From IMG/VR virus record IMGVR_UViG_3300042988_001037, positions 1 through 39,190 of that record: DNA of 39,190 bases; one strand, written 5' to 3'. Within the stretch, counting starts at the first letter, position 1. Each line of letters begins with the position of its first letter. Made by a program: the position numbers and the translations under genes. The DNA is from a virus. Shown here piece after piece: positions 15,814 to 35,757 of this stretch. Under the pieces are notes generated by a model. That model saw only the letters and a list, made by a program, of their open reading frames with translations. It was not told where the DNA came from and ran no database searches.

Positions 15814-16101
15814 TTATGAACCTAACACAACATCAATAGCTTGTGAAGTGGCAACAATACCAGTTTCATCCAACGCAACAACAATAATATCATTTCCTGC
15901 TACTGCTGAAATATTTGTATTTAATGTAAGTGCGTTATAGCCTGCACCAGATGAATGGAAAGTAGTAGTAGGAGTGATTCCAGTACCAACTTTTTGTTTC
16001 AGTGTCCATCCAGGCAAAAGACCAATAACGCTAGTTACTTTTGTATAAGCACTTGTCGTTCCAGCTCCAACTGTTATAGTAAGGGGTGCAAGTGCATTAG
16101 C
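15814..16101 (-). CDS. Tail tube C-terminal extension reached by +1 frameshift
   Basis: A 95-codon continuation in the +1 frame relative to the tail tube gene. It reads ANALAPLTITVGAGTTSAYTKV onwards to AIDVVLGS and looks like an Ig-like or BIG-type beta domain. It has no ribosome binding site at its start. The join is at CCC-AGC-TAA (16105-16097): after CCC, skipping one base continues as Ala-Asn-Ala. The full product would be 256 aa. Programmed frameshifting on proline codons in tail and capsid genes is known in Listeria phage PSA. Confidence 0.7.
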   Translation of the reverse strand, partial: ANALAPLTITVGAGTTSAYTKVTSVIGLLPGWTLKQKVGTGITPTTTFHSSGAGYNALTLNTNISAVAGNDIIVVALDETGIVATSQAIDVVLGS

Positions 16102-16585
16102 TGGGTGTAAATACTTTGGTACTTGTGTTAAAAGCACCAGCTGTTCTAGATCCCGAATAATATACGTCAAACTGTATCTGCATACCATCCGTTTCACCAC
16201 CGATAATAGTAGGTACTAACAGAGCGTTTTCTCTGTATGCAGAAACTACAGAACCATCGTTATCAAGCAAAACATCAACCACATAGGTTTCAAGTGCTGA
16301 GCCTGTTGACCTTGCGTTAACAGCTGCAAACATAGCATCAAATATAGGTTCGTCTTCTGTACAGAAGAATCTATCAACCGTATATTGTGGCTGATATCCT
16401 TTTACGGATGTAGAAGACTCTCCAAGGATATTTGCTATTGTTTCAACCTCTGGGTTTAGCTCAATGTTTAATGCTTCTAAATCCTGACCAATAATGGTAT
16501 ATTCAGATGTAACATTTTTAAATGATGCATCAATGTAATGTGCATAATATTTTCTTTCTATTCTATCGCCTGCAGAACGTGCCAT
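16097..16585 (-). CDS. Major tail (tube) protein, short form
   Basis: A 162-aa protein, MARSAGDRIERKYYAHYIDA, with IIGQDLEALNIELNPEVETIANILGESS and the typical tail tube end FDVYYSGSRTAGAFNTSTKVFTP. It polymerises as hexamer rings to form the tail tube. It stops at TAA three codons after TFTP-like residues, where related proteins continue as TFTPA or TFTPV, so the short form probably coexists with a frameshifted long form. Confidence 0.85.
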   Translation of the reverse strand: MARSAGDRIERKYYAHYIDASFKNVTSEYTIIGQDLEALNIELNPEVETIANILGESSTSVKGYQPQYTVDRFFCTEDEPIFDAMFAAVNARSTGSALETYVVDVLLDNDGSVVSAYRENALLVPTIIGGETDGMQIQFDVYYSGSRTAGAFNTSTKVFTPS

Positions 16586-16589
16586 TTTA

Positions 16590-17012
16590 TCATTCCTTTC
16601 TGTATGTCAATGTATAAATCTGTGTATATGTAAAAGTTCCACTTGCATTTGCTGATTCTAAAAAGGACGGACTAACAATGTCTATTTTTTCGATTATTCT
16701 ATCATCTGTAAGAGCAGGATAATCGGTTTCGGTAAGCCATTTCCCAAAGTCAGATAAATAATCAATCATTTTTATTCTGTCTTCGTCTGAAACAGGGATT
16801 CCACGATAGTTAATCGAAAAAGGAACTAAAGCACGAAAACCACCAAGGATATTTTTATCTAAATAAACAGCACCAGTGCGAGAAAAGAGTGCCTTTGATT
16901 CATCATCACTTGATAACGTTTCAAACTGTATTTCTTCATCATTTTCTTTTAATAGTAAATACAATGCTTTCATAACACTTTCTTGCTCTGATATTCCTAG
17001 TAACGTAGCCAT
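16590..17012 (-). CDS. Tail terminator / minor capsid protein 3-like
   Basis: A 140-aa protein, MATLLGISEQESVMKALYLL, with ALVPFSINYRGIPVSDEDRIKMIDYLSDFGKWL and a C-terminal strand pair FTYTQIYTLTYRKE. This matches the small gene just before the tail tube in Gp15-type phages (minor capsid PF12691-like, from memory), the expected place of the tail terminator. It follows the upstream gene without a gap. Confidence 0.65.
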   Translation of the reverse strand: MATLLGISEQESVMKALYLLLKENDEEIQFETLSSDDESKALFSRTGAVYLDKNILGGFRALVPFSINYRGIPVSDEDRIKMIDYLSDFGKWLTETDYPALTDDRIIEKIDIVSPSFLESANASGTFTYTQIYTLTYRKE

Positions 17013-18234: not shown

Positions 18235-19584
18235 TTATCCTCTTGTTATAATACGACAGATTGGAATAGCTTTGTGTGGGAAATATTCTTTTGTAGGGCT
18301 TTCGTTACTGTTTGCAATCTCCCAGTTTGAACCAGTCGCAAGAGCTGCATTAGTAGGTGAACCGTTTCCACCGTTCCAACTAACTCCAAATGGTGCAAAA
18401 ATCTTTCTCTGACGAGTGTAAAGCGTAGTTTCTCCACCGTTTGTTGAAGGGTTTCTGTCCATTTCATAAGGCACTTTAACACCCATATCAGTGTACTCAA
18501 TAGCACCCTGTCCCAATACATATGTTGTATACTCATTGTATCCAACAACTGCAGCTGTGGAAGTAGCTATCGACCCTGCTATAGTACCGTTTGATGTCTG
18601 AGTAATTTCTATTGTAGGAATAGGTCCTGTTCCTGCTACCTTTTGTGTAAAAGTAACAGTTGTAGATGTTTTGTCAATTGTAAAGTCAGTTGTAAATGAC
18701 TGATTTGCTTCGAGTGCTAACTCCAAAGCAGTACATAATGTTGCAATTGTTTTTCCACCAGCTGGAACGGTGTAGGTAACAGTTTCTCCATTGTAAGATA
18801 TTGCAATTTCATCATTTTCAATAGAGTTTGCTGAAATAGTAAGAGTGTGAACTCCTGCAGTGTCTGCAACTTGATCAACTGGCATATTATCATCAATAAG
18901 AACAAGACGTCCGTTTAATGTTGCAAGCTCCATACTTCTTTCGATTCCTTTTGAATCTGTGTACTTGCAATAATCAACAAGATTCAAGTTTTCGAGAGTG
19001 GTAGATACTTGTGAGTGCATGATAGCAAGTGCAAATTTACCTTTATTATCTCCAAGTGCTTTCTGGATTGCATTGTTTAAAGTTGTTGCTCCAAATGTGT
19101 TGTTGACTGATTCATCAGTAATATCATAAGTATGACCGTTTACAAATTCCAAGTTCTTTGTTCCAGTCATGGAATAAATACCACTTAAAACAGCTAAAAG
19201 TGTAACCTGGTCAATATCGTCCCAGTACTCAGCAATCTCAGCAGCAGCAGGTTCAAAATCTTCTCCTGTAATGTCGCTTGAAAAGTCTTTTTCAACCCAA
19301 CCATAAGCACGTCCAGTTACTACACGTGTATGTGTGTATGTTTTTCTACTTGAAGAGTTAATATTCGTAGAACCGTTGTAGTTATCTGCTGTTCCTGTGA
19401 TTCTTGCCTTGATTGGTACAGTGATAATATCACCACCTGTTTGGTCTGGAGCAAGTGCAGCATACTGTGGCTTGTTAACGATTGCACCAGATTTGATTAA
19501 TTCATTTCTGTTAAGATTGTCAATTGCATCTACGTAGGTTGCGAAAACCTCGCCATTAAAGTTTTTTGCGTCGAATAATGCCAT
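18235..19584 (-). CDS. Major capsid protein with an insertion domain
   Basis: A 449-aa HK97-fold-type capsid protein. The N-terminus is MALFDAKNFNGEVFATYVDA with the strands DIITVPIKARITG; EIAEYWDDIDQVTLLAVLSGI begins the spine helix, and the C-terminus has IFAPFGVSWNGG and FPHKAIPICRIITRG. Residues ~244-347 (HTLTISANSIENDEIAISYNG; YTVPAGGKTIATLCTALELAL) look like a separate beta-rich domain inserted between LVLIDDNMPVD and YTTYVLGQGAIEYTD. Follows the scaffold gene. Confidence 0.88.
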   Translation of the reverse strand: MALFDAKNFNGEVFATYVDAIDNLNRNELIKSGAIVNKPQYAALAPDQTGGDIITVPIKARITGTADNYNGSTNINSSSRKTYTHTRVVTGRAYGWVEKDFSSDITGEDFEPAAAEIAEYWDDIDQVTLLAVLSGIYSMTGTKNLEFVNGHTYDITDESVNNTFGATTLNNAIQKALGDNKGKFALAIMHSQVSTTLENLNLVDYCKYTDSKGIERSMELATLNGRLVLIDDNMPVDQVADTAGVHTLTISANSIENDEIAISYNGETVTYTVPAGGKTIATLCTALELALEANQSFTTDFTIDKTSTTVTFTQKVAGTGPIPTIEITQTSNGTIAGSIATSTAAVVGYNEYTTYVLGQGAIEYTDMGVKVPYEMDRNPSTNGGETTLYTRQRKIFAPFGVSWNGGNGSPTNAALATGSNWEIANSNESPTKEYFPHKAIPICRIITRG

Positions 19585-33878: not shown

Positions 33879-35495
33879 TTATGCCTGTGTTCCTCTTCTG
33901 TTAAAATATGGCTCATAACTGTATCGTAGTGCAGATATTGCATGGTCATTCATGTCTGGATAACCAGATATTACATTGCCCTCTTTATCTCTTTGATACT
34001 CGTATTCTGTTATTTCTTTTAATGCATTAGGAGTTCTTGCGGGGTCTATTATAATCTTTCTTCTTTGCAACCATTTAAATCCATAGTCAACACTCCCTGG
34101 ACCCTTTGTTGCTGACTTTGCAGGTAGCCCCATATCTCTGTAATCTGCAACACTCTTTGGCTCTTCCGAGTCGCACGTGATTGTATAATCTCCGTACCCC
34201 TTATCTATTATCCACTTTGCTGTATCTGCGTTTGGTATTTTGCACCCGTAGTTTTCATCAAGCAAAAATATTTCTTCGTGATTTGAGTTATAATGACTAC
34301 GTAAAAATGAATAAGGGTCTGGATACCATCCCCAGTCTGCCCCCTGGAATATATGGTCAAACGTCGCTATTTCTTCATCTGTTATGGTTCTTATTTCGAC
34401 GTAATCAAACACCATGCCACCATTACCATTTACAACACCACCATATTCATGGTCGTATGCGTCAGGGTTTGTTCTCTTTAAATGCTCTGCTTCATCGATA
34501 AATGGTTGTTCTATCCATTCCACTGGTATTTGCGTATAATCAGAGTGATGCACTATCCTGTTTTCTTTTGGTATTAATACATATTTGTTCGCCCAATTCA
34601 TCGCTGTTTTAGGTGGATTAAATGATTCAAATAGAAAAGCTAAAGGACCACCTCTCAAGGCAGACTGTTTTATTTTTCTTACTTCCTCTTCCCCACAGAA
34701 CTGGTCTAATTCTTCCAGCCAAAGAAAAGCAATATACCCAAACTCTGGATTAATTGATTTAATTTTGTCTGGATCATCTGCACCACGAAAATATATTGTT
34801 TGTCCTGTTGGCTTATATGTAATCTCCAAAGGACTCTTGCCACAATTAAATTCTTCCTGCAACCCTTGCTTATTTATTGCCCACTTTATTTTTGCATATA
34901 CAGAATTTTTAACCGTATTACCTACTTTACGACATACTAACGCATGTGTATCAGGGTTATTTTTTATTAGCTCTACTATTATTTGTGCAATATTTGATGA
35001 TTTTGTAGAACCTCTGCCACCTTTGAATACAAATTCTAGAAATTTAAAATCTCTTATCTGTCGTATAACAGAATGAAAGCAGTCAGCTACATCATACAAA
35101 TCCATATGATATACTTTTGCTTTCCTTGCCTCTTCTTGCATCTTTAACTTTTGCTCGTGTTCTTCCTTGATTCGCAATGCCTTTTCCAAAGATGCAGCTA
35201 CACGTTCTTTGTCCTGGATAGATACGTCTAATCCAAAGGCATCCTTTTCCTGTCCACGTAGCACACGAGTACGAAATTCCTGTATATCCTGTAGTGTAGC
35301 AATAGTAACAACGTCTAGTTTTTGCTGTCTTTCGGCTATATATTGCTTAACATGTTCATACGTCAACAATCGGCTTCCTGATGTAACAGCTGTTTTTTCC
35401 GAATATCCAACCTTTATCGCCGACTGCTTCGCATTACCAGTCTTTATATATTCATCTGCAAACTTCTTTTGTCTCTCTGTCAGTCTATTATCCAT
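33879..35495 (-). CDS. Terminase with fused small- and large-subunit domains
   Basis: A 538-aa protein from the ATG at 35495 (MDNRLTERQKKFADEYIKTG), with AGGAGG 8 nt upstream. A GTG at 35504 touches the ribosome binding site and is unlikely. Residues 1-60 are a small-terminase helix-turn-helix (AKQSAIKVGYSEKTAVTSGS), ~60-125 a coiled linker, then a PBSX-type large terminase: Walker A GGRGSTKS (159-166), Walker B LWLEELDQ, SFNPP motif III, nuclease acidic motifs GADWGWYPDPYSF, TCDSEEPKSV and PDMNDHAISALRYS. The usual arrangement is two separate genes. Confidence 0.9.
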   Translation of the reverse strand: MDNRLTERQKKFADEYIKTGNAKQSAIKVGYSEKTAVTSGSRLLTYEHVKQYIAERQQKLDVVTIATLQDIQEFRTRVLRGQEKDAFGLDVSIQDKERVAASLEKALRIKEEHEQKLKMQEEARKAKVYHMDLYDVADCFHSVIRQIRDFKFLEFVFKGGRGSTKSSNIAQIIVELIKNNPDTHALVCRKVGNTVKNSVYAKIKWAINKQGLQEEFNCGKSPLEITYKPTGQTIYFRGADDPDKIKSINPEFGYIAFLWLEELDQFCGEEEVRKIKQSALRGGPLAFLFESFNPPKTAMNWANKYVLIPKENRIVHHSDYTQIPVEWIEQPFIDEAEHLKRTNPDAYDHEYGGVVNGNGGMVFDYVEIRTITDEEIATFDHIFQGADWGWYPDPYSFLRSHYNSNHEEIFLLDENYGCKIPNADTAKWIIDKGYGDYTITCDSEEPKSVADYRDMGLPAKSATKGPGSVDYGFKWLQRRKIIIDPARTPNALKEITEYEYQRDKEGNVISGYPDMNDHAISALRYSYEPYFNRRGTQA

Positions 35496-35757
35496 CCTGT
35501 ACACCTCCTGACAATTCTTTTAACCTATCCACCAGTAGATTTACTATTTCTATCTGGCTACATGTGTCTATTAGCTTTTCATTTTTCCTTATCTGCTTCC
35601 CATCTTCATCTACCCTTATTACTCTCCTTGTTACTATATACTTTGTTATCATTCTTTTCTTATCATCGCTGTAAAACTCTGTTGTATTTATATTTATAAT
35701 ATCGCCTTTGCATATCAATGCTTTTTGCAGTTTTTTTATTATCTTGTATGTATGCAT
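35488..35757 (-). CDS. Hypothetical 89-aa protein before terminase
   Basis: MHTYKIIKKLQKALICKGDI, then a beta-rich middle (NINTTEFYSDDKKRMITKYI) and a C-terminal helix SQIEIVNLLVDRLKELSGG. It overlaps the terminase start by 8 nt. AGAGGTG precedes the ATG. First gene of the late right operon. Unknown. Confidence 0.65.
   Translation of the reverse strand: MHTYKIIKKLQKALICKGDIININTTEFYSDDKKRMITKYIVTRRVIRVDEDGKQIRKNEKLIDTCSQIEIVNLLVDRLKELSGGVQDG

What the first reader, a model, noticed from the sequence alone, without database searches (positions are those of the whole stretch)
15814..16585. Probable programmed +1 frameshift extending the tail tube protein
The tail tube gene stops at 16097, but the +1 frame continues seamlessly at CCC-AGC-TAA into a 95-residue beta domain with no start signal of its own. 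The short frame ends with FTPS and the shifted frame gives FTPANALAP, a more natural tube ending. A minority long form with an exposed Ig-like domain is known for Listeria phage PSA and others.
Basis: partly seen in the sequence, partly recalled or inferred. Interest (0 to 1): 0.66.

Follow-up and report, generated by a model that had tools for sequence, protein, structure and literature searches.

The report
Frameshift-extended phage tail tube protein
A gut-type phage probably makes two versions of its tail-tube protein, because some ribosomes slip forward one base at a rare proline codon just before the stop and add an extra surface domain; the trick is known from a few phages, but here it reappears in several relatives that carry other kinds of tail, which makes a sequencing error unlikely.

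Summary
The tail-tube gene (16585-16097, minus strand) ends TTT ACA CCC AGC TAA. One base forward (CCC A|GCT AAT) the frame runs on for 95 codons with codon usage like the window's genes and no start of its own.

The extension is an Ig-like domain of the SbsC type. Four relatives (L132, L178, L179, L185) carry it fused in frame at the same place on the same tube protein, and Lachnospiraceae genomes carry it on capsid proteins and another tube family. AlphaFold gives a tube fold plus a confident SbsC-like Ig domain.

CCC is 4 of 209 proline codons in the window, against 116 CCA, so a CCC-to-CCA slip fits the SPP1/PSA mechanism. Among 278 related tube genes, the CCC-A site recurs with an open +1 tail in L089, L107/L290 and L046, in separate lineages (p about 3e-4, test framed afterwards). 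This argues against a miscalled base.

Best reading (0.82): programmed +1 frameshifting makes a minority tube subunit with an exposed Ig-like domain; a new member of a known kind. UGA-readthrough-like acidic tails in relatives may be more novel. No protein evidence exists.

The parts
16097..16585 (-). Major tail tube protein, short form (162 aa, ends ...KVFTPS)
   Evidence: phrog_3099 E 1e-33; sits between the tail completion protein (phrog_3266) and phrog_11299/Gp15 and the tape measure gene; model residues 6-157 match tail tubes of 80alpha Z 8.6, NF5 Z 8.2, SPP1 Z 7.3
16594..16599 (-). Shine-Dalgarno-like AAAGGA of the tube gene
   Evidence: read from sequence
16102..16105 (-). +1 slip site CCC_A (P-site tRNA-Pro moves from rare CCC to overlapping CCA; AGC in the A-site)
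   Evidence: sequence; CCC 4 of 209 Pro codons, CCA 116; conserved with open +1 tails in L089, L107, L290, L046
16097..16099 (-). TAA stop of the short form, separated from CCC by the codon AGC
15817..16101 (-). +1-frame extension, 95 aa, Ig-like domain of the SbsC C-terminal type (PF18316)
   Evidence: PF18316 E 8e-5 (below its curated cut-off); SbsC domain Z 9.9 over 92 residues; homologous domains in frame on L132, L178, L179, L185; codon score
15814..15816 (-). TAA stop of the long form (256 aa)

Best explanation
The gene makes two tail-tube proteins. Most ribosomes read ACA-CCC-AGC-TAA and release the 162-residue tube subunit. Some pause with peptidyl-tRNA-Pro on the rare codon CCC; the tRNA slips one base forward onto CCA, the next codon read is GCT, and translation continues for 95 codons, giving a 256-residue subunit. 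The long form assembles into the tube by its common N-terminal domain and displays an SbsC-type Ig-like domain on the outside of the tail, where it probably aids weak binding to the host surface, as proposed for SPP1 gp17.1*. Shown by computation: the two frames, the coding character of the +1 frame, the domain identity, the rarity of CCC, the recurrence of the site. Inferred: that slippage occurs, its rate, incorporation into virions, and the binding role.
For: Open 95-codon +1 frame with codon use like the window's genes. Same domain in frame at the same position in L132, L178, L179, L185. Site CCC_A followed by an open +1 tail in L089 (TCT CCC AGC TAA, 39 aa), L107 and L290 (CCC AGC ..., 20-22 aa, with in-frame indels between the two), L046 (ACA CCC AAG GAA AGC TAG, 35 aa). 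All 3 clusters with acidic +1 tails fall among the 11 of 152 clusters with a late CCC-A codon, p = 2.9e-4; no acidic -1 tails. The +1 sites fall on separate branches of the tree among relatives without recoding. CCC rare, CCA common. AlphaFold: tube fold plus Ig domain (pLDDT above 90 over most of the extension). The domain recurs at the C-termini of Phage_cap_E, Phage_capsid and Phage_tail_2 proteins. Precedents: PMC6316719, PMC5009743, PMC8718954.
Against: No protein or ribosome data. No close relative with the same out-of-frame Ig arrangement was found (nearest tube 56% identical). No stimulatory RNA structure (z 0.08) and no stop codon in the A-site during the slip. The tails in L089, L107/L290 and L046 are unrelated in sequence to the Ig domain. 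L342 has CCC AGC with no such tail. The genome of L089 has a tRNA-Pro(GGG) that reads CCC, so lack of a cognate tRNA is not general. The L107/L290 tail shows too few changes to prove selection.
Confidence: 0.82

Rival explanations
1. Sequencing or assembly error: the real gene is an ordinary in-frame fusion and one base was miscalled near the CCC run.
For: Four relatives have the fusion in frame; the join lies at a short homopolymer; the window is an IMG/VR virus record held as one contig.
Against: The recognised structural genes (terminase, portal, capsid, scaffold, tape measure) are read as single open frames, though this was not tested systematically. The same CCC-A arrangement with open +1 tails occurs in L089, L107, L290 and L046, from different assemblies. 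L089 shares CCCAGCTAATGCA with the window although the proteins are only 54% identical.
Confidence: 0.1
2. Real but accidental: a recent single-base mutation put the Ig domain out of frame, and it is decaying, expressed little or not at all.
For: In-frame versions exist; most relatives manage without any extension; the SPP1 extension is dispensable in the laboratory (PMC6316719, PMC8718954). The review PMC5009743 notes that frame relations of Ig domains may reflect chance landing.
Against: The frame has no internal stops, keeps gene-like codon use and a full-length domain, and the junction is exactly a rare CCC over a common CCA.
Confidence: 0.06
3. The extension is a separate protein started inside the tube gene.
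For: A GTG at 16200 opens the +1 frame.
Against: No ribosome-binding site seen; its N-terminus would be the tube gene read out of frame; homologues are fused, not separate.
Confidence: 0.01
4. A variant of the best explanation: the +1 shift happens one codon later, on AGC with UAA in the A-site (FTPS-NALAP rather than FTP-ANALAP).
For: A stop in the A-site favours slippage elsewhere (SPP1, PSA tsh; PMC6316719, PMC5009743).
Against: Re-pairing of the AGC-reading tRNA on GCU would be poor (inference from pairing rules), and in L107 and L046 the stop is 3 to 4 codons from CCC.
Confidence: 0.07

Closest known systems
Bacillus phage SPP1 gp17.1/gp17.1*
   Same: Tail tube protein, +1 shift at a rare CCC onto an overlapping common proline codon at the 3' end, Ig-fold (FN3) extension of 87 aa (here 95); tube core similar in fold (6yeg Z 7.3)
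   Different: SPP1 site is CCC_UAA (stop in A-site, slip to CCU); here CCC_AGC_UAA (sense codon in A-site, slip to CCA); a different Ig-like domain (SbsC type), and the tube sequences were not directly compared
Listeria phage PSA tsh and cps (also A118, A500 tsh)
   Same: +1 shift on CCC; [quoted passage not shown]
   Different: tsh uses CCC_UGA; cps is a capsid gene with a stimulatory pseudoknot; none predicted here
In-frame tube-Ig fusions L132, L178, L179, L185 in the same tube family
   Same: Same tube family and same Ig-like domain at the same junction (36-45% identity in the domain)
   Different: No frameshift: every subunit would carry the domain
Phage lambda gpV
   Same: Tube domain followed by a C-terminal Ig-like domain (Foldseek match)
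   Different: Single product with an in-frame Big_2 domain

Membership tests
Major tail tube protein (siphophage) | Homology or fold of tail tube; place between tail completion and tape measure genes | tested here: met
   phrog_3099, neighbours; fold matches to 80alpha, NF5 and SPP1 tubes
Programmed +1 frameshift of the SPP1/PSA type | Rare CCC codon near the 3' end overlapping a common proline codon one base on | tested here: met
   CCC 4/209, CCA 116/209
Programmed +1 frameshift of the SPP1/PSA type | Coding +1 frame continuing past the stop with no start of its own | tested here: met
Programmed +1 frameshift of the SPP1/PSA type | Slip site kept in relatives together with an extension | tested here: met
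   L089, L107, L290, L046, with unrelated tails; no close relative with the same Ig extension out of frame was found
Programmed +1 frameshift of the SPP1/PSA type | Stop codon in the A-site (SPP1, PSA tsh) | tested here: not met
   A-site codon is AGC; PSA cps also lacks this (PMC5009743), so it is not required of the wider kind
Programmed +1 frameshift of the SPP1/PSA type | Both products made, at a fixed ratio, and present in virions | not testable with these tools
   needs protein data
SbsC-type Ig-like domain (PF18316) | Profile match and Ig-like beta sandwich | tested here: inconclusive
   Profile 23.5 bits, just below the 26.6 cut-off; fold match Z 9.9; related domains on other phage proteins pass the cut-off

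The most novel reading that the evidence does not exclude
The 3' end of this tail-tube family (phrog_3099, phages of Clostridia) is a general recoding slot: different lineages hang an Ig-like domain or an acidic tail on a fraction of tube subunits, some by +1 slippage at CCC_A and others by UGA readthrough, the latter not reported for a phage tail tube in the papers that could be searched here.
Probability: 0.5. Interest if true: 0.7.

Novelty: new member of a known kind. Interest (0 to 1): 0.5.

Why it matters
It adds a tube family from phages of gut Clostridia to the short list of tail genes with +1 recoding, and shows the same Ig-like domain on the same tube protein both in frame and shifted, so the consequence of decorating all or some subunits becomes testable. 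The recurrence of recoded tails in relatives suggests that partial decoration of the tube is selected, perhaps by more than one translational route.

Tried and rejected
RNA stimulator downstream of the site: no structure beyond chance. DNA motif scan for TTYNCNCCCAGCTAATGC in viral contigs: 11 hits, none recognisable as a tube gene, so the motif alone is not a marker. Single-protein searches for the tube and the extension in viral contigs, and for the extension in phages, found no relative; alignments were needed. Solved-structure search by sequence for the extension: none. Internal start for the extension: rejected. -1 frameshifting: that frame closes after a few codons. Other long +1 frames in relatives (L155, L156, L165, L125) look like the next gene. 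L041's +1 frame is basic and cysteine-rich, probably a separate gene. The tRNA-Pro survey in five genomes was only partial. The host of the window was not identified.

Full report
What is there. The window is a whole IMG/VR virus record with a siphophage module on the minus strand: terminase, portal, scaffold, capsid, connectors, tail completion, tube, phrog_11299, Gp15, tape measure. The tube ORF (16097-16585) ends TTT ACA CCC AGC TAA. One base forward after CCC the frame stays open for 95 codons, to 15814.

More than chance. The extension's codon use scores 0.42 bits/codon against a gene mean of 0.30 and a shuffled mean of -0.16 (0 of 2000 as high); a run of 95 open codons has probability about 2e-4. 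One reverse-strand frame also scores 0.32, so the homology below is the stronger evidence. No start codon with a ribosome-binding site is seen at the beginning of the extension.

What the extension is. Pfam gives the SbsC C-terminal domain (PF18316, E 8e-5, below cut-off). An AlphaFold model of the 256-residue long form (25-row alignment, mean pLDDT 85) has residues 6-157 in the tail-tube fold (80alpha Z 8.6, SPP1 Z 7.3) and residues 163-256 matching SbsC Ig-like domains (Z 9.9, 2.5 A over 92 residues). Middling Z scores for the tube part would not be proof alone; gene order and phrog_3099 agree with them. Related domains lie at the C-termini of Phage_cap_E, Phage_capsid and Phage_tail_2 proteins in genomes of the family that holds L089 (Lachnospiraceae): a mobile domain of virion surfaces.

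Relatives. Searches gave 278 distinct tube genes of the family, 152 clusters at 80%. Most end within a few residues of F-T-P/A, so the short form of the window is a complete tube protein. In L132, L178, L179 and L185 the same Ig-like domain is fused in frame at this point.

The site recurs. L089 (Roseburia MAG) ends TCT CCC AGC TAA and has a +1 tail of 39 residues, acidic at its end; L107 and its close relative L290 have CCC AGC and +1 tails of 22 and 20 residues that differ by in-frame indels; L046 has ACA CCC AAG GAA AGC TAG and a +1 tail of 35 residues. Counting one per cluster, the three acidic +1 tails all lie among the 11 clusters with a late CCC-A codon (p 2.9e-4), and there are none in the -1 frame. 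This test was framed after seeing the cases, so the p value is indicative. On a tree of 97 tubes the +1 genes lie on separate branches among genes without recoding; at least three changes are needed, two of them forced by well-supported branches. One CCC AGC gene, L342, has no such tail.

Mechanism. CCC is 4 of 209 proline codons in the window and CCA 116. SPP1 is described as pausing on rare CCC and slipping to the overlapping frequent CCU (PMC6316719); PSA, A118 and A500 tsh use CCC_UGA, and PSA cps ACA_CCC_UCC (PMC5009743). [quoted passage not shown] Better pairing of tRNA-Pro(UGG) on CCA is an inference; the L089 genome also has a GGG tRNA. No stimulatory structure was found.

Function. 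By analogy with SPP1, where the two forms occur 3:1 and the extension is dispensable (PMC6316719, PMC8718954), the long form should decorate the tube and help weak binding to the host surface. This is inference.

Doubts. A miscalled C would turn the gene into an in-frame fusion like the four relatives; the recurrence of the site in independent assemblies is the main argument against this. No protein evidence exists. A relative with the same Ig domain out of frame was not found.

Side finding. In relatives L124, L144, L205-L210, L213, L214, L229 and in L055, an acidic tail of 23-37 residues follows an in-frame TGA (TGA A in every case printed), with tails of different length ending alike. In the L124 group its amino-acid to synonymous change ratio is 0.66 against 0.08 in the core, so constraint is weak. 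Counting clusters, acidic in-frame tails occur after TGA and not after TAA or TAG, apart from L202, where the next gene appears to be in frame. Sister tubes L046 and L055 (77% identical) reach acidic tails by different routes. A literature search found no report of this, within the library held.

Noticed in passing
3' ends of the tube genes in L124, L205, L206, L208, L209, L210, L213, L214, L229, L144, L055: Tube genes of relatives end in TGA followed in frame by a 23-37 residue acidic tail without a consistent start codon (e.g. RAMPAADSVPLAEIKEEEVKPNGKEDEEPVI), suggesting UGA readthrough.
   Followed up: partly
L046 and L055, 3' ends of the tube genes: Sister tube genes (77% identical) reach acidic tails by different routes: +1 at ACA CCC A and in-frame TGA.
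   Followed up: partly
window 33879-35504: The terminase ORF matches small-subunit families at its N-terminus (phrog_51, residues 4-110) and large-subunit families over the rest: a possible TerS-TerL fusion.
   Followed up: no
window 18235-19584: The major capsid protein matches head-protein families at residues 1-256 and 343-448, with about 90 residues between that may be an inserted surface domain.
   Followed up: no
L371, L372, L374: The PF18316 SbsC-type domain is fused in frame to two capsid families and to Phage_tail_2: a mobile virion domain named after an S-layer protein.
   Followed up: partly
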